Shown one piece after another: positions 3 to 30,900 of a stretch of DNA of 35,195 bases. Origin of the DNA: a virus; IMG/VR virus record IMGVR_UViG_3300031977_000093, positions 1 to 35,195 of that record. One strand, 5' to 3'. Below the pieces are notes generated by a model, which worked only from the letters and a program-made list of their open reading frames with translations, did not search any database and was not told the DNA's origin. Positions within the stretch are counted from its first letter, which is position 1. Every line of letters begins with the position of its first letter. The position numbers and the translations under genes are program-made.

Positions 3-773
3 ATGGCTGTTAAGAAAACTACAGAAGGTGCAATGGTTACTGCTTTGGAGCATGCTAACATTACATTGCGATTAATTGGAACAACACCGTTCTATTATAA
101 TTCGATGAGCGTAAAGGCGAAGCGTGATCTATTAATTGGGAGTGCCCCGAAGACCACGGCTGAAAAGCGTGAGATTAAGCACAATCCCGAACAAGAGTTT
201 AGAGATTCTGTTTATAAGAAAAGCTACGGAAAAACGCATTTGTATTTTCCACCTGCTGCGATCAAGCAAGCGATGGCTACGGCTGCGATTGAAACGAAGG
301 GTGTTGCAAGAACCAATGTTCAGCGTTTGCTTTTCTTTCCTCAATTGGAGACTGAAATCTACGGCAGACCATATTTGAAGATCGACACGGTTCGCATGGC
401 GAACATTAACAAAACGCCCGATATGAGAACCCGAGCATATTTGCCCGAGTGGTGTGCGGAGATTAATGTTTCGTTTGTACAACCCACGTTATCCGCAACA
501 GATGTGTTTACGTTGTTGCAGAACGCAGGTTCGATTGTTGGCTTGGGTGATTTTCGTCAGGAGAAGGGGCGAGGTGCTTATGGGTGCTTCACTGTGACTG
601 GCGAGGATTTACCGAACTGGAAAGATTACAAAGCCGATTGGAATCGCATTACGAAAGAGGGAATGGAAGCGCAAAAACTTGCGATGGCAAACCCCGAGTG
701 TGCAGATGAAATGACTGAAGAGTTGATGGGTTATCTTAATGAAGAACGTGCCCGTCGCATGGTAGCGGCATAA
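3..773 (+). CDS. Phage protein of unknown function with RAMP-like (Cas7/Cas5-like) features
   Basis: A 256-residue protein whose ATG lies 2 bases from the window edge, so its ribosome site and promoter are outside. Three features recall RAMP-superfamily RNA-binding proteins: an N-terminal strand-rich segment (about residues 18-36), a segment reading YFPPAAIKQAMATAA (about 82-96) that resembles the IPGSSLKGxxR motif, and a glycine-rich stretch GLGDFRQEKGRGAYGCF (about 179-195) placed like the RAMP G-loop (GhGxxxxxGhG). The C-terminal ~50 residues are charged and helical. Similar proteins of unknown function occur in many phages; that is recall, not a search. The ordered pentanucleotide array starts 58 bases downstream on the same strand, so the two are probably co-transcribed. 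The RAMP assignment is inference only. A phage recombination or structural protein with an unrelated fold is the main alternative. Confidence 0.6.
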   Translation: MAVKKTTEGAMVTALEHANITLRLIGTTPFYYNSMSVKAKRDLLIGSAPKTTAEKREIKHNPEQEFRDSVYKKSYGKTHLYFPPAAIKQAMATAAIETKGVARTNVQRLLFFPQLETEIYGRPYLKIDTVRMANINKTPDMRTRAYLPEWCAEINVSFVQPTLSATDVFTLLQNAGSIVGLGDFRQEKGRGAYGCFTVTGEDLPNWKDYKADWNRITKEGMEAQKLAMANPECADEMTEELMGYLNEERARRMVAA

Positions 774-831: not shown

Positions 832-1108
832 GGCAAGGCAAGGCGGTCATGGCTCGGTCCGGTAAGATAAGGCACGTTGTGGCTTGGTTTGGTCCGATGT
901 GGTTGCGGTATGGCGGTCAAGGTTAGTCCCGGCGAGGCGTGGCGCGGTAAGGTATGTTGTGGTGATACACGGTATGTTACGGCGGTCATGGAATGGCACG
1001 ATTCGGTATGGTGCGATTTGGTCTGGTTCGGCTCGGTCCGACAAGGTTAGGCGGTTCAGGCGAGGCATGGCGCGGTATGTTGCGGTGCGGTGCGGTCTGG
1101 TTCGGCAT
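832..1108 (+). repeat. Nested pentanucleotide array (GGYNN pentads in ~69-nt units)
   Basis: The stretch between the genes ending at 773 and starting at 1178 is not coding. From 832 it reads as 48 successive pentads of form G-G-Y-N-N: 47 begin with G, 37 begin with GG, and 47 have C or T at the third base (the exception is GGAAT at 990). The phase is broken only by a 9-nt linker, GGCGGTCAT or a close variant, at 842, 912, 981 and 1050, spaced 70, 69 and 69 nt. Each full unit is the linker plus 12 pentads; the last has 10 and the array starts with two lone pentads. One pentad (901) has six bases. Pentads differ at positions 4 and 5. Units B (912) and D (1050) share a run around GGCGAGGC..GGCGCGGTA. 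G-rich, C-poor strand asymmetry is strong. Bases 774-831 before it hold nothing recognised. Confidence 0.9.
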
Positions 1109-1177: not shown

Positions 1178-1702
1178 ATGGAAGATAGAGTTGACTCCAT
1201 TTGGAACAAAGACGAGCGTCAGAAGATTGTTGATGATTATCTGAAAGAGACTCGTCGCAACATGTATAAAGTGGATGAGTTCACAGATTGGCTTGAGGAC
1301 AGGCCAGATCATCCATGTTATGAGCGGTTCTTTGGTTCTGGTGATAAAGAGGCTGCGCGTCAGCATCGAATGTCATTAGCGCGTCAGTTGATTAGCGGCT
1401 TACGGATTCAGGTTCATATTCCACCAGTCAAGAAAGTTGATGTCAGTGATTTGGCAAAGGCTATCAGCTATGAGGCACCCGCATTTCTTAGCCCCCAATC
1501 GAGTCGGCGCAGTGGTGGCGGCTATGTGCCATATGATCCAGACAGTGAAGATTCGAGAGCTGAGTTGCGTAGGCAGGCTGCATCTGATTTGGCGCGTTGG
1601 TTGAATCGTTATCGCGGATGCGTTGAGGCGTATGGCGTAAGTGTGCAACCGATTGAAGAGATTGCGAGTGCGCTGCGAGGTGGAGAAGAGGAAGCGGCAT
1701 GA
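1178..1702 (+). CDS. Conserved phage protein of unknown function
   Basis: A 174-residue soluble protein. The ATG follows a good ribosome site (AGGAGAAG, 1167-1174) directly after the array hairpin. Around residues 38-80 it has WLEDRPDHPCYERFF followed by an Arg/Ala-rich helix (AARQHRMSLARQLISGLRI), a pattern I associate with small phage proteins of the form 'DP.HPLY..F.W.D..AA..YR...AR.LI', all without known role. The middle (about 95-120) is Ser/Gly/Pro-rich and probably a linker, and a second helical part follows. Its last four bases overlap the next start (ATGA), so translation is likely coupled. No catalytic motif or membrane segment is visible. Confidence 0.75.
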   Translation: MEDRVDSIWNKDERQKIVDDYLKETRRNMYKVDEFTDWLEDRPDHPCYERFFGSGDKEAARQHRMSLARQLISGLRIQVHIPPVKKVDVSDLAKAISYEAPAFLSPQSSRRSGGGYVPYDPDSEDSRAELRRQAASDLARWLNRYRGCVEAYGVSVQPIEEIASALRGGEEEAA

Positions 1703-2076
1703 AGACGCGTTACGAAGAGATCGAAGAAGCTGCTGTTAAGTTCCACAGGGAGAATCCCAAGGTGTGGGAGTGTTTTGTTCGGTTTACGTTTGAGGTTATT
1801 CACCGAGGCTTTCGAAATTACTCTGCGAAGGGTGTGTTTGAGCGCATTCGGTGGGAGACAGATGAAGCGGATGTGGACGGCAAGTCCACATTCAAACTTA
1901 ACAACAACTACAGCGCATTCTTTGCTAGGTGGTTTATGGATACTTATCCCGAACATGATGGGTTTTTTCGCTTGAGGGCAATGCCGAGTGAGTTGCAACT
2001 TGCGAAGAATTTGCCAGAGTTAGGACCGCAAGACTTTCCAGAGTTAAAGCGACACAGTTTTGAGGATTTGCCATGA
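1699..2076 (+). CDS. Conserved phage protein of unknown function
   Basis: A 125-residue protein overlapping both neighbours by 4 nt. Recognisable blocks are FHRENPKVWECFVRF (about 15-29), RIRWETD (about 49-55), FKLNNNYSAFFARWFM (about 64-79) and PEHDGFFRLR (about 83-92). This is a recurring phage family (ENPEVW..F, IRWET, NN..SA.YAR.F, P...GFF..R) that I recognise by pattern; its biochemical role is unknown to me. There is no signal peptide or membrane segment. The W/Y/F/R-rich core and the position beside a Fis-type DNA-binding protein fit a small nucleic-acid or regulatory factor, but that is a guess. Confidence 0.75.
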   Translation: MKTRYEEIEEAAVKFHRENPKVWECFVRFTFEVIHRGFRNYSAKGVFERIRWETDEADVDGKSTFKLNNNYSAFFARWFMDTYPEHDGFFRLRAMPSELQLAKNLPELGPQDFPELKRHSFEDLP

Positions 2077-2414
2077 GCGTTTTAGAAGACACGATGTGCA
2101 TGCATTATGTTCGGGATAGGCTGAACGGCATTGTAACCGAGAGCGACATGCTGCGGTTTATTGACGAGATTGACCACAACTTGCAGATCAACGAGGAGTG
2201 GCGACAGGCTAACCCGAACATTTCTGACGAGCACGATGCGATTGATCCTGACGACTTTGATGTGCAGGGAGCGATTGACAATGTGAAGCGTAATTACATT
2301 GAAAGGGCAATGGCCCGATCAAAGAACGTGACTGAGGCTGCGAAGTTGTTAGGGTTAAAGAACTATCAGACGTTGCAGAATTGGATGGACAAGTTGGGAG
2401 TTGATTATGATTGA
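2073..2414 (+). CDS. Small protein with C-terminal Fis-type helix-turn-helix
   Basis: 113 residues. The last ~40 (from about NYIERAMARSKNVTEAAKLL) match the Fis/NtrC C-terminal DNA-binding helix-turn-helix: a YIERAM helix, a turn, a recognition-type 'TEAAKLLGLKNYQTLQNWM' segment, and the end. The N-terminal ~70 residues are acidic and helical with no recognised domain; there is no AAA+ module, so it is not an NtrC-like activator. It is probably a DNA-binding or architectural regulator acting on phage promoters. It overlaps the preceding gene by 4 nt and the following gene by 8 nt. Confidence 0.75.
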   Translation: MSVLEDTMCMHYVRDRLNGIVTESDMLRFIDEIDHNLQINEEWRQANPNISDEHDAIDPDDFDVQGAIDNVKRNYIERAMARSKNVTEAAKLLGLKNYQTLQNWMDKLGVDYD

Positions 2415-7326: not shown

Positions 7327-7360
7327 ATGGGGTTGCGTTAGTAGCGCACCCCATTTTTTT
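7327..7360 (+). terminator. Plus-strand (antisense) intrinsic terminator inside the minus-strand operon
   Basis: ATGGGGT (7327-7333) pairs with ACCCCAT (7348-7354); one bulged T then lets GCG (7335-7337) pair with CGC (7345-7347). A run of T (7354-7360) follows on the plus strand, giving a textbook intrinsic terminator oriented against the flanking genes. Read on the minus strand the hairpin is not followed by T, so it would not stop the operon. It overlaps the stop codon of the nuclease gene. Confidence 0.7.
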
Positions 7361-8142
7361 TATTCATTCCAACAAGTCTCACGAAACTCGCAGAATTTGC
7401 ACAGGAAAAAATCTTTACTTTGCGCTATGCGGGGTAGAATGTCACCCGCTTTCGCACTCGTCAAGATATTCACTGCGCGATCACTCGCTTCTTGCGCCAG
7501 AACAGGATTGTACGGCACTAGCTCGTAATAGATTTCAGACGTATTTTTATTGACCACTGTGAAGAGCGCAGGGTTTTCCGTTAGCTCCATATACGTCTGG
7601 TATAAAGCAATCTGCGTTGCATACACTGGGTTGGCTTTTGCAACACCATGGCGCATGAATGCTTTGAACTTTGAATCGTTTGCTGACTTATTTTCCCACA
7701 AACATGGATAGCCCATGGCGACAGGACCATCACAGACTACGCCGTCTATGTGGCCTCTGATCTGATCATCAGCGATTGAGAACCCAAATTGTTCGCCTTG
7801 TGAGTCTTCTGTCCGCAGATCAAACCCTGCATCCTTGATCCACTTAGCTGCGTAATCTTCGATCTCGTGACCGAACTGAAAGATGCGCAGCGTTTGTGCG
7901 CTGAACTCTTTGTCTGGGTCCACAGGATAGTTGAGGTAGCGATACTGTATCTTGCGCTGACATTCGTCACCGATACTAGATGCGCCAATGTACTTGCGGC
8001 GTTCGCGTTTCTTTTCGCCTGCGACAATGGCATTGTCTACCGCTGCTTTGATGTGCTCAACAATTGGGTCATCCTTAGAAGGGGATTGATGTAGAAGGCC
8101 AAGTGCCTGTTGACTTAAAGTAGGTTTCTTCGAGCTTTCCAA
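7360..8142 (-). CDS. Cas4/RecB-type PD-(D/E)XK nuclease with probable Fe-S cluster
   Basis: 260 residues. RecB-nuclease motifs appear in order: FGHEIED (90-96, metal/DNA-binding His), GHIDGVV (130-136, catalytic Asp133), WENKS (149-153, Glu150 and Lys152) and YATQIALYQTYM (174-185, Gln motif). Four cysteines, C61 in GDECQRK and C248, C251 and C257 in CKFCEFRETC (C-x2-C-x5-C), match the 4Fe-4S ligand pattern of Cas4 and AddB. It should resect or trim DNA ends during phage recombination, beside a Sak4-like ATPase. There is no CRISPR array or Cas1/Cas2 nearby, so a stand-alone phage exonuclease is the better reading. The start is TTG 8142 with CGGAG 7 nt upstream; no ATG exists until deep inside. 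It overlaps the next upstream gene by 68 nt. Confidence 0.85.
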   Translation of the reverse strand: MESSKKPTLSQQALGLLHQSPSKDDPIVEHIKAAVDNAIVAGEKKRERRKYIGASSIGDECQRKIQYRYLNYPVDPDKEFSAQTLRIFQFGHEIEDYAAKWIKDAGFDLRTEDSQGEQFGFSIADDQIRGHIDGVVCDGPVAMGYPCLWENKSANDSKFKAFMRHGVAKANPVYATQIALYQTYMELTENPALFTVVNKNTSEIYYELVPYNPVLAQEASDRAVNILTSAKAGDILPRIAQSKDFFLCKFCEFRETCWNE

Positions 8143-8299
8143 TGTTGATCTCCGCTGCTAGACGTTCTGCTTCCTGTAATCCAAAGATTAGTGTGTGGAC
8201 CTGCTCTTCTGTTAAGTCAGAGAACCGTGTGTCCCACCCAAACTTTCCTAGTATATGCGCCAATTCTTCGATTGGCTTTGGTGCTGATGGCACTGTCAA
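8075..8299 (-). CDS. Small helical protein of unknown function
   Basis: 74 residues with a TTG start at 8299 (GGAG 8 nt upstream), overlapping the previous gene's stop as TTGA. The core FSDLTEEQVHTLIFGLQEAERLAAE (about 26-50) reads as two amphipathic helices. The C-terminal ~22 residues overlap the nuclease start in another frame and are unremarkable. Position between two replication genes and its own ribosome site support expression; no family recognised. Confidence 0.55.
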   Translation of the reverse strand: MTVPSAPKPIEELAHILGKFGWDTRFSDLTEEQVHTLIFGLQEAERLAAEINIGKLEETYFKSTGTWPSTSIPF

Positions 8300-8601
8300 T
8301 GTACTGTCTCCTCTCGTGACCCGAACAATTCTATGACTTCATCTACTTCTTCCGGGTCTGCATCTTTGTTTCTGAAGCCGATGTTTAATACTTCTGAACC
8401 TTTGATGATGACTGTGGCTGTGCCGAACAGAACTGTGTGCTCTGCGTCATAGATATGCTCTTCGATAACTTCGTTCGCTATCTCTTGGACTTCGCCTAAA
8501 TCTTCTGGATCATTGACCCAACACACCATCTCAATTTCAGATGTTTCGATATTCTCCTCACTCTTTTCTGCAATCATGAGGTACATTTCAAATCTCGGCA
8601 T
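8296..8601 (-). CDS. Acidic phage protein of unknown function
   Basis: 101 residues from ATG 8601 (GGAG about 7 nt upstream); a TTG 15 nt earlier is a weaker option. Strongly acidic (many D/E in EKSEENIETSEIEM, NDPEDLGEVQEIANEVIEEH and DADPEEVDEVIELF) with alternating strands and helices, a ferredoxin-like layout. Acidic small phage proteins sometimes mimic DNA or inhibit host nucleic-acid enzymes, but there is no specific evidence here. Overlaps the upstream gene by 14 nt and couples to the next by a TTGA overlap. Confidence 0.6.
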   Translation of the reverse strand: MPRFEMYLMIAEKSEENIETSEIEMVCWVNDPEDLGEVQEIANEVIEEHIYDAEHTVLFGTATVIIKGSEVLNIGFRNKDADPEEVDEVIELFGSREETVH

Positions 8602-8752
8602 TCGGTTTCTCCACAATGCGTTTGGCTAAATCAGAGATTAGATTAGCCGTGGCTCTTGTGGTTAACTCTACATGACCGACCTCTTTGCCGTCTACCCACA
8701 TGTAAACGACTGGTCCAGTCTCGCCATCTCGTACCGTAATTAGCTTTATCAT
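8588..8752 (-). CDS. Small beta-rich phage protein
   Basis: 54 residues (MIKLITVRDGETGPVVYMW...) starting at ATG 8752, which overlaps the helicase stop as ATGA; a longer frame to 8941 would run inside the helicase gene and has no ribosome site. The first half is a beta hairpin (VVYMWVDGKEVGHVEL), the second a helix (TTRATANLISDLAKRIVE). Function unknown; translation is coupled to the helicase. Confidence 0.6.
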   Translation of the reverse strand: MIKLITVRDGETGPVVYMWVDGKEVGHVELTTRATANLISDLAKRIVEKPNAEI

Positions 8753-10443
8753 TCTGCCGCCTGTTGCATGATTTTTTGTTGTGCTTGATTGTAGTGCGCC
8801 TTGTAACGATGCTCGGTCCATAGGAAGCCAAGAGCGCAGCTTGCGCGGTACTTGGTCCATGAAAAGTCCATGACGTTTACTTCGACGCCTGCATCTCTTA
8901 GCAATTGGATTTGCTTTGCCGATGCTTTTTGGTTGAGCCAACGCTTGGTTTTGTTTGCTGCGCTGTCATCTTCGATCTCACGCAGGAAGTCATCTGCTGC
9001 TCGCATTGCGTTGATCTTATCGCCAATGGCTACTGTGCGCACTGGCATGGACTGTGGCTTGACCATAGCAACCCAAAAGTCATTGACGTATAGCGGAGCG
9101 ATACAGACAACACCTTTGAATCCCAAAGCCATCATAATGTCGCTTTCTGGGAACGGTTCGATCCACAGGAATGGTGACATCTTCATTAGATCGTACTCGG
9201 TCATTACAAAGTTTTCGAGTACATCCTTTTCGGCTTTCTGGAAGATGTGACCGCAGAATGGGCATTCGCGTGTGGTTGGTGCAACCTCAGCTTCACACTC
9301 TGGGCATACCTTAACTGGGGCTTCACCACCCTCTCGCTTGACCGCGCCATCTAGGTTGGCTGTGTCATCAAGAGAACCGTGCGTAATAACGGACGTTCCA
9401 AAGTCCATGACGATGCAGTCTGTCTTGACTGTGTTCGGATATAGCTCTGGATCAACGATGCGCAGCCCACGACCAATCATCTGCACCATAGTGCCCTTCT
9501 GGGAGCAGGGACGCGTCAGGACAACACAAGAGACTGGTGGGGCGTCAAACCCTTCTGTAAGCACCGCTACGTTCACAATCACCTGTGTGTCGCCATGCTC
9601 TAGGTCATGCAGCATTTGCTCACGCTCGGCTTTGTCTGTCTCTCCTGTGACGTAATCAGCTTTAACGCCTGCGAGCAAGAACGCTTCGCAAAGATGTTCG
9701 GCATGTTTGACTGTCGAGCAGAAGACAACGGTCTTGCGATCACCTGCCTTCGCCTGCCATTCCCGAACAATTCTATCGTTAATGACTTGGCGGTCCATGA
9801 TCGCGGCGACCTCTTCCATGTCATACTCTTTGCCGCGCTTCGTGACTTTGTTCAGGTCATCGTTTACGCCAAGGTCAACGACAAACGTCTTGGGGCGCAC
9901 GAGGTAACCTTCGTGAATAAGTGTTGCCAGTTCGATCTGGTGTGCGCAGTTATTGAATACTGAGCGTAAGCCTTTGCCATCGCCACGGTTGGGCGTAGCT
10001 GTGAAGCCCACGATCTCTGCGCTGTCATTGTCTTCAAGGATCGCGTCAATCACACGACGATACGTGGGAGCCGCTGCATGGTGACCTTCGTCAATGACGA
10101 CCATATCGAACTTGGGACGCTGTGCGAGATTGCGTTCACGCGAAATGGTCTGAACCATTGAGAACACTGCATCTCCTTCCCAATGCTTAACCGTACCGTT
10201 GACGATACTGGTGGTCATCAGGGGGTTTACCTTTTTGAACTTGGATTGGTTTTGCTCAACAAGTTCGTCGCGGTGTTGGACGACAAGAATCTTTTTGCCC
10301 TTCTTATGACGCTTGCCTACGAGCGCAGAGAGCATGATGGTTTTGCCTGCACCTGTTGGTGCGACAACTAGGGTATTGCCGTGCTTGTCGAGGGCACTGA
10401 GTGCGTCGTTGACGGCTACCTCTTGGTAGGGACGTAATAACAT
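8749..10443 (-). CDS. SF2 DEAD/DEAH-box helicase with C-terminal zinc ribbon
   Basis: 564 residues. Superfamily 2 motifs in order: Q-motif-like RPYQ (4-7), Walker A APTGAGKT (28-35), motif II DEGHH (118-122), motif III TATP (148-151) and motif VI QMIGRGLR (321-328), followed by a CPEC...CPFC zinc ribbon (C380, C383, C394, C397) and a ~165-residue C-terminal region of unknown role. This is the phage UvsW/RecG/SSL2-like helicase type that remodels branched DNA or assists replication and recombination. The next genes upstream are the DUF669-like and Sak4-like genes, so a role in the recombination pathway is likely. ATG 10443 lacks a strong ribosome site. Confidence 0.88.
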   Translation of the reverse strand: MLLRPYQEVAVNDALSALDKHGNTLVVAPTGAGKTIMLSALVGKRHKKGKKILVVQHRDELVEQNQSKFKKVNPLMTTSIVNGTVKHWEGDAVFSMVQTISRERNLAQRPKFDMVVIDEGHHAAAPTYRRVIDAILEDNDSAEIVGFTATPNRGDGKGLRSVFNNCAHQIELATLIHEGYLVRPKTFVVDLGVNDDLNKVTKRGKEYDMEEVAAIMDRQVINDRIVREWQAKAGDRKTVVFCSTVKHAEHLCEAFLLAGVKADYVTGETDKAEREQMLHDLEHGDTQVIVNVAVLTEGFDAPPVSCVVLTRPCSQKGTMVQMIGRGLRIVDPELYPNTVKTDCIVMDFGTSVITHGSLDDTANLDGAVKREGGEAPVKVCPECEAEVAPTTRECPFCGHIFQKAEKDVLENFVMTEYDLMKMSPFLWIEPFPESDIMMALGFKGVVCIAPLYVNDFWVAMVKPQSMPVRTVAIGDKINAMRAADDFLREIEDDSAANKTKRWLNQKASAKQIQLLRDAGVEVNVMDFSWTKYRASCALGFLWTEHRYKAHYNQAQQKIMQQAAE

Positions 10444-10469
10444 TGGAACACCTATTCGCTAGAAAAGTG

Positions 10470-10536
10470 AGGGGGGATTGCGGCCCACGGCCCCCCTGTC
10501 CGTGGTCTAGCAGGCGCGGATTGGCCTTGCCGCTAG
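10470..10536 (-). other. Two stem-loops between the DUF669-like and helicase genes
   Basis: AGGGGGG (10470-10476) pairs with CCCCCCT (10491-10497) around a 14-nt GC-rich loop, followed on the minus strand by TCACTTTTC. A second, CTAGC-A-GGC/GCCGCTAG (10507-10536, one bulge), begins right after the stop at 10538. Together they may form an attenuator or RNA-stability element that lowers helicase expression; a proper T tract is missing. Confidence 0.45.
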
Positions 10537-10537
10537 A

Positions 10538-11158
10538 TTAGCGTTGCGCCCATGACGGAACAGCACCAGACGCTTGAGGCTGCGCGGGGGCAGCTTGCAT
10601 TGTCTGTGCAGCCGCAGGGGTCTGCATTACTGGAGCTTGTCCACTTGGAACGAACTCCCGCGAATTAGGTGTCAGGGCAGCGATCAGACGATTGCTATCA
10701 GAGTAACCGTTTGTGCCCTTCTTGATTCCGACCTTAGCACAGATTTCTAGTGCGTTTAAGTCAAAAACGCCAGAAATATTACGAGCTTGCTGTGCTTCTG
10801 GTGACATATCCGCAGGATCAATGTTACGCGCACTTTCGATCAAAGACTTCAGTGTACGCAAACCAATCTCTTTGGCTTGTGGAATGCCGCTCTGACCCAT
10901 CTTGTCGCCATCGACAAACACACGGTCCCAGAACTTGCGACGATCATACTCACCGCCCACAATTGTGAACTCCAGTTCCATCCACTTCGCCGCTGTGGAC
11001 ATGGACTTCTTGAACCATGCGCCTTGACCGAACTCAGGGATTTCCATGTCGCCTTGCTTGACGACCATGACTGCGCGGCACACTGTGCCGTTAGGGATTA
11101 GCGAGAACTCACGCTCTTGTGGGTTATCGTCTGCGGGTACATTGTTTAGATTAAGCAT
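10538..11158 (-). CDS. DUF669-like putative ssDNA-binding protein
   Basis: 206 residues. About residues 60-80 contain KWMELEFTIVGGEYDRRKFWDRV, the 'L.L.F.I..GeY..R..WDR' core of DUF669-type phage proteins, then a helical part and a C-terminal P/A/Q/M-rich low-complexity tail (about 170-206) ending VPSWAQR. DUF669 members sit next to Sak4-type ATPases and are thought to be OB-fold ssDNA-binding proteins; the tail here is not acidic as in SSB, which is unusual. It overlaps the Sak4-like gene by 8 nt, so the two are probably made as partners. Assignment by pattern, not by search. Confidence 0.7.
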   Translation of the reverse strand: MLNLNNVPADDNPQEREFSLIPNGTVCRAVMVVKQGDMEIPEFGQGAWFKKSMSTAAKWMELEFTIVGGEYDRRKFWDRVFVDGDKMGQSGIPQAKEIGLRTLKSLIESARNIDPADMSPEAQQARNISGVFDLNALEICAKVGIKKGTNGYSDSNRLIAALTPNSREFVPSGQAPVMQTPAAAQTMQAAPAQPQASGAVPSWAQR

Positions 11159-12023
11159 TTACTTGCTCCTCTTCGCTAGAGTTTTGAGTTGCAGGATCAA
11201 CGAATGTCAAATCCTTTGGTTGGTCTGGAGAGCCACTGGACATTTTGTCCATCAGTTTACCCAGATGTGGCTCTTCCAATACGTCGAGGCGACCTGAGCG
11301 ATCTTTCGCAGGGTAACCCCATTCGTTCAGAGGCTGACAGACGAACGCACGATACTGACCGTGGTCACCTGAAAGAACAGCCATTGTGATCATTTCGTCA
11401 ACAATCCCGGGCAATTCACGCCCTGTCTTGCTGCCTTCGATCTGTAGAGCGTATTGCTTACGCCCGTAATCATCTGTGATTTCGTCAAGAATGCCAACGA
11501 AAACCACATTCTTTTCGCGGATGTGCTGCAAGTGAGTTAGCCAAGACATCATCTCACGACCATGCATGCCATAGGCTGCACGGGTGTCTAGCTTGCCAGA
11601 CCGCTCTGAGCGTGAGTCTGGTTGCTGTAAGCACCACTGAAAGCATAAACGCCCTGCAACTGTGATAGAGTCTACAAAGAGCGTATCATACTTCTGCATG
11701 ATCTCCACGCTGTCGCCAAACATCGACACGACGTAATCGTAGTGCGCTTGACTGTATGGTTGATCTTCGCTCAACGCGGGATTTGGACCCCCAATGAAAC
11801 ATGCGAGGTCACGACACTCTTGCCATGTTCGTGGACGCAATACGTCAACAGGGAATCCTTCGATAGCGGCATCGCCTGCTTCCAAGTCCAAGAACAGAGT
11901 GGTGCTAGGGTTTAGGGTACGAGCCAGTGTGGTTTTACCCACACCGCTTGCACCGCATACTACGATCTTGTGGCCTTTCTTTTCAGCTAGGCGTTGATCG
12001 GCTGTGATAATTTGTAGGGCCAT
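11151..12023 (-). CDS. RecA-fold ATPase, Sak4/AAA_24 type single-strand annealing factor
   Basis: 290 residues. Walker A is GASGVGKTT (24-32) and a Walker B-like hydrophobic strand YDTLFVDS (112-119) follows; a further strand, NVVFVGILDE, leads into a basic segment. This matches the short RecA-like Sak4/AAA_24 phage proteins that promote annealing and strand exchange with an SSB partner. Here that partner would be the overlapping DUF669-like protein, and the Cas4-type nuclease would supply 3' single strands. The C-terminus (from about 255) is polar and unstructured. ATG 12023 overlaps the upstream stop by 1 nt. Confidence 0.8.
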   Translation of the reverse strand: MALQIITADQRLAEKKGHKIVVCGASGVGKTTLARTLNPSTTLFLDLEAGDAAIEGFPVDVLRPRTWQECRDLACFIGGPNPALSEDQPYSQAHYDYVVSMFGDSVEIMQKYDTLFVDSITVAGRLCFQWCLQQPDSRSERSGKLDTRAAYGMHGREMMSWLTHLQHIREKNVVFVGILDEITDDYGRKQYALQIEGSKTGRELPGIVDEMITMAVLSGDHGQYRAFVCQPLNEWGYPAKDRSGRLDVLEEPHLGKLMDKMSSGSPDQPKDLTFVDPATQNSSEEEQVNA

Positions 12024-27900: not shown

Positions 27901-30900
27901 TTAGACCACCTTTTCTATGCCAAAGTAGTTTGCGCCCATCACGTTAAGAACGGCTGTTCCTGCCAAACTTGTAAAACCAATTCGGGCAGCAATGGGGTCA
28001 ATTCCCCCGCTGTCAGAAAAGGCTGTTGTGAATGATGCTGTATCGCCACCGCTGTCACGCACAGAGAAGCCGATGCCGCCATTGTAATGCTGCGCCCGAA
28101 CAAGATACCACGCGGCGGCATTTCCAGATGCTCCGCCATCAATTTCAGATATTGTTATAAAGAAGTGCGCCGTAGACCATTGGTTCGTTGTGCTATCAAG
28201 GTAGTAATCTATATAAATCGAGCCACTAGCAGACGCTTCAGATGTGGCAACAACAGTAGGTTCAACAAGGCTATTTACTGACCAACCGACTGTTCGAGTA
28301 GAAAGCATTTGCTCTTCATTAAGACGCATACCCTCTTGGAAAGCATTAGTAGAAGCTGTGTCGTTTACATAAAAACGTAAGTCTCTTCCGTAGCCTCCAT
28401 ATTCCCCAGTTCTAAACGAGGCAATTCCCGCGATACCCTGTGCGCCCGTAGCGTCTTTCCAAGTGATCGCATTACCCGTACCGTTACCTGTATTACTGTT
28501 GTACAAGGTTAATCCGGGCGGGATCGTACCAGATGTGTGAGAAGAACCTGCCGCATTCAAGTTCATCAAGTTTTCACCGCTTGAAGCGTGAATGTTTACT
28601 CGGTTGTTTCCTGCATCCACGAATATGGCATGAGTGTCTGTGTCACTCTCAACACGGAAGTCATTCAAAGAGCGACTATTCTCGTTAAAGATTGCGCCTT
28701 CGGAACACAAGTCTAATGCTCGTGCCGATCCTATATCACTTGCATTGTCTGACGTACTCCAAGTGTAGAACGAAATAGCGTTATTATAGTTTCCACTGCC
28801 ATCGTGCCGAGTGCGAATACTATGAGCATAGTTGTATGACTGATCGTAGCCCAGACGTACTTGAACGCCACCGCCTCCTGCGCCATTAGTGTCGCCAGCT
28901 CGTAAAGTTAAAGCAGTAGACGACTGTGAACCAAATACATCAAGATAAGATTGCGGATTAGACACACCAACGCCCACACGATCAACACCCGCTTCAACAA
29001 ATAGCATATGGGTGTTGTTATTTGACTCAACACGGAAGTCAATGTCGTTACTGCTATCATTAAACACATTGCCTTGGGGGTAAGACCATTTTTGGAAACG
29101 GCGAACATTGTTCGTATTGTCTACGTCTAACGTGACTTCAAAAGCCGCTGTGGTAAAGTCAGAACCTGTAGATTCCCTAATGCCAGAAAAAGAAAGCGCA
29201 GTAGAGTTGCCTGTGTTTTGTGCAAGCTGCAATATCCGATATGCAGACCCCGCTGCGGAAGCCATTGTGGTGGGGTTGGATACCACCGCAGTTGTGGAAG
29301 TGAACACAGTCCCGCTGATGTTACTTCCAACCTGAAATAATCCGTTATAGTTATTTGCTGTGCCTGTTCTTCCAATAGATACATGATCGTAACTTGCATC
29401 CAAAAACAGCATATGACTGTAGTTGTCACTCTCGACGCGGAAGTCGTTATAAGAGACTCCATCTTCGTTGAAAATTGCGCCTGTGGTTGCGTAGACACTA
29501 AAAACATCAATCTGGGATGAGTTATAAGTGTCTGAAGGCGTCATATACATATTCATCTGGCCTAGATAGCCATTTGTTCCATAACCCAACATGTCCATCT
29601 GGACCATTGCATTCGTTGCGCCACTGTCGCCCCTTTTGATACGCTTTCTAATCTTACGACCAGCGGATGAACTTGTTCTGAAAATTAATTCTTGAGCAGT
29701 TGAGTTGTCCAACCCCATACGAACATCGCCGCTATTTAAAATCATCATCTGAACGGCTAAGTCTGTAGCTTGAGCATCATCAGCACCAGAAGGGGCTGTT
29801 TCAAACCTGTGCGTACCCGTATTCATCTGATAACGAGCCGCTGCGCCCGTTGTCAGGTATCTGTTTGTGCCATCTGTATTGACATACAAGTTTTGGTCGA
29901 TAGTCATACGACGATCACTTGAGCCATTGCTCAGTGACCACATTGAGGCAACTGGACCCAGTTTAATTGAGGTTGTGTCGAATCCAGTATAAAAATCACT
30001 GTTTGTGGTGTTCAGGGCAAGGCCACCTGTGCTACCATCTAAGAACAAAGCATTGCTGCGGCTGCTGCTTTCAATACGGAAGTCGTAGTCATTTCCATTA
30101 TCGTTGAAAACAGCAGCACCAGACGAATTTCCGAGCGTAAAGCGTGTAGTAGCATTTGTTGCAAAAGAAATAGCATTGTCTTCACGGTTCTGGATGAAAA
30201 AAGTGTTGCCAGACATGAAGAGTTCAGTGCCATCAGAAGACGTGTTTCCTGTGGTGCTATTTCTAAATGCAAGCCTTGGTATTGTTGTGTCATAAATACT
30301 AATACCGCTCCCACTAGGGTGAGTTGGAGCATTTGTACCAACGCCAATTAAACCGTCAGATTTTATGAAGAGCGCGTTAGCCGCAGAAGATGTTTCAAAA
30401 TTGTACCCACCTGCTTCTGAGTCAAAGTTCGCATTAGCGCCAGAAAAATCTAAAGTAAGCGCACCCGCTGTTCCTGTATCTCTTGTAAACTTAATTACAT
30501 CTGTTGCACCCGTGACATTTACCTCAAGAGGTACACTCGGTGCCGCAACATTGACGCCCACCCGATCATTCGTGCTATCGACGTACAGGGTGTCGGTGTC
30601 TACGGTTAGGTCGCCATTTAAAACAGTATTGCCAGTTACAGTAAGTGTTGTTGTATCAACTGTCATTGCTGTAGACGCATCAATATCAACAGTAGGCGCA
30701 ACAATCTCAACTTCAGTATCCGCATCAATATCCAACTGCCCGTCGGCGGACGAACTAATTTTTAAAGCAGTATCGCGAAATTGAAGCTCATCGGTTGTTG
30801 TCATCTGAATAGCATTGCCACCCGATGTATTCCCGTTGGCAAGAACTTCGGACAGTTCGTTATTGGCACCAACCTGTGTATCCACATACGCCTTGATCGA

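What the first reader, a model, noticed from the sequence alone, without database searches (positions are those of the whole stretch)
832..1108. A doubly periodic pentanucleotide array of 48 GGYNN pentads in ~69-nt units with a conserved linker
Direct reading shows that 47 of 48 successive 5-base blocks start with G and have C/T at the third base, with positions 4-5 free. The register is reset only by a 9-nt linker beginning GGCGGT at 842, 912, 981 and 1050 (spacing 70, 69, 69). The two internal spacings equal the linker plus exactly twelve pentads. This is neither CRISPR nor a simple microsatellite: nested period, constant and variable positions and exact unit size look selected. One variable pair per pentad gives 24 free bases per unit. 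Such a transcript could be an RNA coated in 5-nt steps or a guide-like molecule.
Basis: seen in the sequence. Interest (0 to 1): 0.9.

Follow-up and report, generated by a model that had tools for sequence, protein, structure and literature searches.

The report
Phage VIPR gapped-guide RNA locus
The repeat is the guide array of a VIPR system, a recently described CRISPR-like weapon that phages carry. Each 5-base block holds two letters of an address, and here the four addresses spell out conserved genes of competing phages.

Summary
The array is real and far beyond chance. It is the guide array of a VIPR system (Viral Interference Programmable Repeat; preprint PMC13142463, April/June 2026), in which a RAMP protein (Vipr) uses RNAs of alternating GGY/NN and reads the NN pairs against DNA with one skipped base.

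Evidence here: the gene just upstream (3-773) belongs to a family whose profile matches the solved SUSP1 Vipr protein (PDB 36pp, E=1.3e-37), and its model has a Csm3/Cas7-type fold. Homologs lie beside such arrays in 88 of 120 viral loci. The '9-nt linker' is a 4-nt reset (GGCG) plus an ordinary pentad.

Decoded by the published 1-nt skip rule, all four guides match conserved phage genes in IMG/VR: major capsid protein (13/13 pairs), phrog_13678 of HMO-2011-type phages (12/13, over 120 contigs), T7-type primase/helicase (10/13, weakest) and family-A DNA polymerase (10/11). For one guide, 0 or 3 skipped bases gave 0 hits and 1 hit (a sister array).

A 96%-identical relative carries a wholly different first guide, so guides turn over as cassettes.

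The system is already described; this is a new member with decoded targets. Transcription, binding and interference were not tested.

The parts
3..773 (+). vipr gene: 256-aa RAMP-family protein (phrog_4652), presumed to coat the array RNA; upstream end may be cut by the window edge
   Evidence: Profile of the family hits PDB 36pp_D 'SUSP1 Vipr protein' E=1.3e-37; AlphaFold2 model pLDDT 91.5 matches Csm3/Cas7-type RAMPs; invariant G176, G180, R185, G194
832..841 (+). two leading pentads GGCAA GGCAA before the first reset; not part of a matched guide
   Evidence: Direct reading; identical in the relative L377
842..911 (+). guide unit 1 (70 nt): GGCG + 13 blocks; NN = AT TC CC AA AA AC GT TT TT CC GT GC AT; predicted target HK97-type major capsid gene, antisense strand
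   Evidence: 13/13 pairs in L363, L364, L365 and 12/13 in L367 with 1-nt skip; target protein PF05065
901..906 (+). 6-nt block GGTTGC; read as GGTT+GC it gives the pair GC, which matches the target codon, so the extra base lies in the constant part
   Evidence: Pair 12 mismatches as TG and matches as GC in all four unit-1 targets
912..980 (+). guide unit 2 (69 nt): NN = AA TA CC GA GT GC AA AT GT GA AC AT (AC); predicted target phrog_13678 gene next to the capsid gene of HMO-2011-type phages
   Evidence: At least 120 contigs at 10-12 of 13 pairs with 1-nt skip; 0 hits with skip 0; 1 with skip 3
981..1049 (+). guide unit 3 (69 nt): NN = AT AT AC TC AT GC TT CT TC TC (CC AA TA); predicted target T7-type primase/helicase, antisense strand
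   Evidence: 10/13 pairs in L378-L381 and L383, also L371; protein family phrog_239
1050..1108 (+). guide unit 4 (last): NN = CA GA AT GC AT GC GC GC CT TC (AT); predicted target family-A DNA polymerase motif
   Evidence: 10/11 pairs in L374 and L376; PF00476
1123..1149 (+). strong hairpin (11 bp, 5-nt loop) after the array followed by ACUUUUAACA; terminator-like or RNA 3' tail
   Evidence: RNA fold -21.8 kcal/mol, z -5.4; similar hairpin after the array in L043 and before it in L020 by reading
1178..1702 (+). 174-aa candidate vipr-accessory (vap) gene (weak phrog_15946)
   Evidence: jackhmmer finds its family in 30 of the array loci fetched from elsewhere; in the close relatives it lies beside vipr

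Best explanation
The locus is a phage-borne VIPR system. The array at 832-1108 is transcribed into RNA whose GGY blocks are gripped by successive Vipr subunits (gene 3-773), leaving the NN dinucleotides to pair with DNA. Each NN reads two target bases and one base is skipped, so a 69-nt unit specifies about 12-13 codons' worth of target with the wobble base ignored. Each of the four units starts at a 4-nt GGCG reset and encodes one guide. The predicted targets are conserved genes of other phages (major capsid protein, the phrog_13678 gene beside a capsid gene, primase/helicase, DNA polymerase), so the complex most likely silences competing phages in a shared host. Shown here: array, family membership and fold, association, target matches. 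Inferred from the published system: transcription, RNA coating, DNA binding, repression. Units may be separate guides or overlapping RNAs; I cannot tell.
For: Family profile of the adjacent protein matches the solved SUSP1 Vipr; the single sequence also does, weakly, in the glycine-loop region (E=0.0037). AlphaFold2 model (pLDDT 91.5) matches Csm3/Cas7-type RAMPs, VIA Z up to 10.3 over 158 residues. Homologs next to degenerate GGYNN arrays in 88/120 viral loci (86 on the same strand), and in 4/120 cellular loci, all four with varied pentads rather than microsatellites; also in isolate phages UmaThurman, Brocalys and Ecliptus. All four guides match phage genes under the 1-nt skip rule: U1 13/13, U2 10-12/13 in at least 120 contigs, U3 10/13, U4 10/11. 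Skip controls for U2: 0 and 1 hit. No target in the phage itself: at most 6 pairs at skip 1. A guide of L043 (Vipr 85% identical) hits the capsid gene in 15 contigs that had been fetched with the window's U2 guide. Mechanism from PMC13142463.
Against: No RNA, binding or interference data for this phage. The U3 match stops at 10 of 13 pairs and is the weakest. The remaining viral guides, tested as a set against the small pool of fetched loci, gave hardly more matching guides than shuffled guides (5 versus 0-4; only the L043 guide stands out, 19 guide-locus pairs in all versus at most 5). The U1 and L377 unit-1 guides had no convincing site in 385 alphaproteobacterial chromosomes; the other guides were not tried there. 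The vap assignment rests on position and co-occurrence only. Skip 2 was not scanned across IMG/VR.
Confidence: 0.95

Rival explanations
1. A degenerate pentanucleotide microsatellite made by slippage and drift, without function.
For: Plain GGYNN microsatellites are common in bacterial chromosomes.
Against: Those have few distinct pentads and no vipr gene beside them; the phage arrays have mostly different pentads, a fixed -1 reset and a vipr neighbour. The NN strings match conserved phage genes in 3-nt steps, which drift cannot give.
Confidence: 0.01
2. A protein-binding RNA decoy or assembly scaffold, like TRAP-type 5-nt-step RNA binding, where GGY is the signal and NN is spacer.
For: The 5-nt period and conserved triplet resemble the (G/U)AGNN repeats bound by TRAP (from memory).
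Against: If NN were only spacer it would not match target genes; it matches four of them. The adjacent protein is a RAMP related to Vipr.
Confidence: 0.02
3. A VIPR locus used in this phage mainly to regulate the phage's own or the host's genes rather than rival phages.
For: The published complex is a programmable repressor that can silence genes from either strand.
Against: No guide has a skip-1 match above 6 pairs in the phage's own 35 kb; the U1 guide has none with 3 or fewer mismatches in 385 alphaproteobacterial chromosomes. Matches found are capsid and replication genes of other phages.
Confidence: 0.04

Closest known systems
VIPR systems, SUSP1 and Pseudomonas fulva type II (PMC13142463)
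   Same: RAMP-fold Vipr protein detectable by sequence (PDB 36pp), GGY/NN repeat array, number of repeats per guide (10-13 matched, 9-16 published), 1-nt skip targeting, targets in other phages, candidate accessory gene nearby.
   Different: Four guides sit head to tail in one short array with only a 4-nt GGCG reset and no obvious 3' tail between units; array lies between vipr and the candidate vap gene; targets are genes of marine/alphaproteobacterial phage groups rather than satellites or Pseudomonas prophages. The type (one of seven) could not be assigned because the supplement was not readable.
Class 1 CRISPR-Cas (types III and VII; Csm3/Cas7)
   Same: Predicted fold of the coat protein (VIA Z about 10); guide units in an array; RNA presumably coated by repeated subunits.
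   Different: Only one RAMP found; no cas genes recognised among the neighbours searched and no CRISPR repeats; address spread over NN pairs instead of a contiguous spacer.
TRAP-bound leader RNA (from memory, not tested)
   Same: Triplet plus 2-nt spacer repeated in 5-nt steps.
   Different: Different triplet, different protein, no base-paired target.

Membership tests
VIPR | Vipr protein, a single small RAMP homolog with glycine-rich loop | tested here: met
   PDB 36pp_D E=1.3e-37 with the family profile; RAMP fold; invariant glycines and R185
VIPR | Non-coding array of alternating GGY and variable NN, 9-16 repeats per vrRNA | tested here: met
   13 pentads per unit, 10-13 of them matching target
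VIPR | Targets read with a 1-nt skip | tested here: met
   Computational: all four guides; controls for guide 2 with skip 0 and 3; not shown biochemically
VIPR | Accessory vap gene in the locus | tested here: inconclusive
   Co-occurring 174-aa gene family but no sequence of published vap1-6 available to compare
VIPR | 3' tail with conserved structure on the vrRNA | tested here: inconclusive
   Hairpin at 1123-1149 after the whole array; no tail between units by reading
VIPR | vrRNA transcribed and bound by Vipr; represses target | not testable with these tools
   Needs small-RNA sequencing, pull-down and a reporter assay
CRISPR-Cas class 1 | Identical direct repeats separating contiguous spacers, with cas genes | tested here: not met
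   No CRISPR-type repeat: Tandem Repeats Finder, Rfam and direct reading; no cas effector operon among the neighbours searched

The most novel reading that the evidence does not exclude
VIPR arrays are actively updated: the unit nearest the vipr gene (unit 1) is swapped for a new guide between 96%-identical phages while units 2-4 stay nearly identical, implying a process that converts a target sequence (xNN) into GGYNN form and inserts it, that is, a guide-acquisition mechanism unlike CRISPR adaptation. Plain recombination between arrays of different phages would explain the same data.
Probability: 0.08. Interest if true: 0.92.

Novelty: new member of a known kind. Interest (0 to 1): 0.5.

Why it matters
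VIPR was described only in April 2026, mainly from an E. coli phage and a Pseudomonas prophage. This locus gives a computational test of the gapped code in an uncultivated phage: four guides, each matching a conserved gene of other phages, among them HMO-2011-type phages. It also supplies two details useful for decoding other arrays (a recurrent -1 reset, and a 6-nt block that still reads as one pair) and a clean case of guide turnover between close relatives, which bears on the open question of how such guides are made.

Tried and rejected
Rfam: no family. BLASTN of the array against phages and plasmids: only short chance matches, as expected for a degenerate repeat. RNA folding of single units: no consistent structure (z from -2.2 to +1.6), so a structured RNA is not supported within the guides. 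Literature on pentanucleotide repeats in phage genomes: nothing. Looking for one rival phage that carries all four targets: the targets lie in different contigs; one 45-kb contig (L286) has the U2 target and a 2-mismatch U3 site. Looking for host chromosome sites for U1 and the L377 unit-1 guide: none convincing. Other arrays' guides against the fetched loci: number of matching guides hardly above shuffled controls, except for the many loci of one L043 guide. An alignment of the window with the wrong slice of L377 was discarded; the right comparison is.

Full report
WHAT IS THERE. Window 832-1108 (+) holds 52 five-base blocks (two leading blocks, then 13, 13, 13 and 11), 50 of which have G first and a pyrimidine third (direct reading). 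The frame is shifted at 842, 912, 981 and 1050. The same -1 reset is seen in other arrays as GGCA+GGYNN, GGCG+TTCAN, GGCA+GTCCA or GGCC+GTCAN. One block, 901-906 GGTTGC, has six bases. In a frame-penalised parse the array scores 47.5 against at most 24.5 in 1000 Markov resamples of itself.

HOW WIDESPREAD. A scan for eight consecutive GGYNN in IMG/VR returned its 120-locus limit; nearly all are arrays of many different pentads. A scan of bacterial and archaeal genomes with ten repeats also hit its limit, but those are mostly plain microsatellites. A jackhmmer search with the window's 256-aa protein finds a homolog in 88 of the 120 viral loci, 86 on the array's strand, and in only 4 of the 120 cellular loci, all four with varied pentads (L142, L151, L162, L168). 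Named isolates Gordonia phage UmaThurman, Mycobacterium phage Brocalys and Gordonia phage Ecliptus have the same pairing of gene and array.

THE PROTEIN. The 256-aa protein is phrog_4652, function unknown. In a 45-sequence alignment R144, W150, G176, G180, R185 and G194 are invariant. The AlphaFold2 model has mean pLDDT 91.5. Foldseek's best solved structures are Csm3/Cas7-type RAMP subunits of type III and VII CRISPR complexes, VIA Z 10.3, rmsd 3.5 over 158 residues. The family profile matches PDB 36pp chain D, named SUSP1 Vipr protein, at E=1.3e-37.

THE KNOWN SYSTEM. PMC13142463 (bioRxiv 2026.04.26.720920) describes VIPR: a phage RAMP protein, Vipr, with vrRNAs of 9-16 GGY/NN repeats that recognise double-stranded DNA through the NN pairs with one skipped target base, repress transcription and act against competing phages. 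The window meets the two sequence-level criteria, protein and array.

DECODING THE GUIDES. I read the NN pairs after each GGCG as NNxNNx... and scanned IMG/VR with nine consecutive pairs (18 fixed bases; I expect of the order of one or two chance hits if the collection holds roughly 50 billion bases, an assumption). Unit 2 reached the 120-locus limit; all 120 match 10-12 of 13 pairs, and the target proteins examined belong to phrog_13678. Unit 1 gave 8 hits, three of them 13/13 pairs and one 12/13 once the 6-nt block is read as GGTT+GC, on the antisense strand of an HK97-type major capsid gene. Unit 4 gave 4 hits, two of them 10/11 in family-A DNA polymerase. Unit 3 gave 2 hits with one set of pairs and 7 with another, five of the latter 10/13 in T7-type primase/helicase, antisense. 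Controls with unit 2: zero skipped bases 0 hits; three skipped bases 1 hit, which is a sister array, not a target. The window itself has no skip-1 match above 6 pairs.

WHERE THE GUIDE BEGINS AND ENDS. In units 1, 3 and 4 the first pair after GGCG matches the best targets; in unit 2 it matches in about a third of targets. In all units except unit 1 the last one to three pairs fail. Pair 13 of unit 2 differs from all 120 targets and holds one of only two positions in units 2-4 that differ in the relative L377. I infer that a guide starts just after GGCG and uses about 10-13 pentads.

THE TARGETED PHAGES. phrog_13678 homologs are found in HMO-2011-type phages of SAR116, Roseobacter and SAR11 hosts. 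A guide of L043, whose Vipr is 85% identical to the window's, matches the start of the major capsid gene in 15 of the contigs fetched with unit 2; since this guide played no part in fetching them, this is independent support. The unit 1 target is closest to Rhizobium, Sinorhizobium and Labrenzia phages, the unit 3 target to Roseobacter phages. A virion protein of the window phage is itself most similar to phages of Gammaproteobacteria, Roseobacter and Pelagibacter. A shared alphaproteobacterial host range is therefore plausible but inferred.

GUIDE TURNOVER. L377 comes from a 56-kb contig that is 95.8% identical over about 9 kb. Its units 2-4 differ from the window at 2 of 197 bases, one in a Y position and one in the last pair of unit 2, while unit 1 is a different guide of 65 nt. 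I could not scan IMG/VR for that guide's target; two 3-mismatch sites in 385 bacterial genomes are at chance level.

LIMITS. As a set, the other viral guides hardly exceeded shuffled controls in number of guides matched within the 3.3 Mb of fetched loci, so the test of the skip rule rests on the window's four guides and L043's. The supplement of the preprint was not readable, so the VIPR type, the vap families and the published staggered arrays could not be compared. Nothing here shows transcription or activity.

Noticed in passing
L119 (guide at reverse-complement position 2929) and L069:9246-10004: A guide of L119 matches 10 of 16 pairs (9 consecutive) inside the vipr gene of L069, which would be one VIPR phage aiming at another's VIPR; such cases are reported in PMC13142463.
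   Followed up: partly
window 2073-2414: 113-aa gene with a Fis-type helix-turn-helix downstream of the candidate vap gene; found only in the window's own array locus among those tested.
   Followed up: no
window 30671-30737: Short imperfect 21- and 24-nt tandem repeats inside the 1183-aa reading frame on the minus strand.
   Followed up: no
window 7360-12023, minus strand: Recombination/replication block: Cas4-domain exonuclease (phrog_1990), helicase (phrog_16) and Sak4-like annealing protein (phrog_124).
   Followed up: no
L142 (Aureimonas ureilytica contig): Bacterial contig with vipr (47% identical), the candidate vap gene and a GGCA-reset array; possibly a prophage or plasmid.
   Followed up: no
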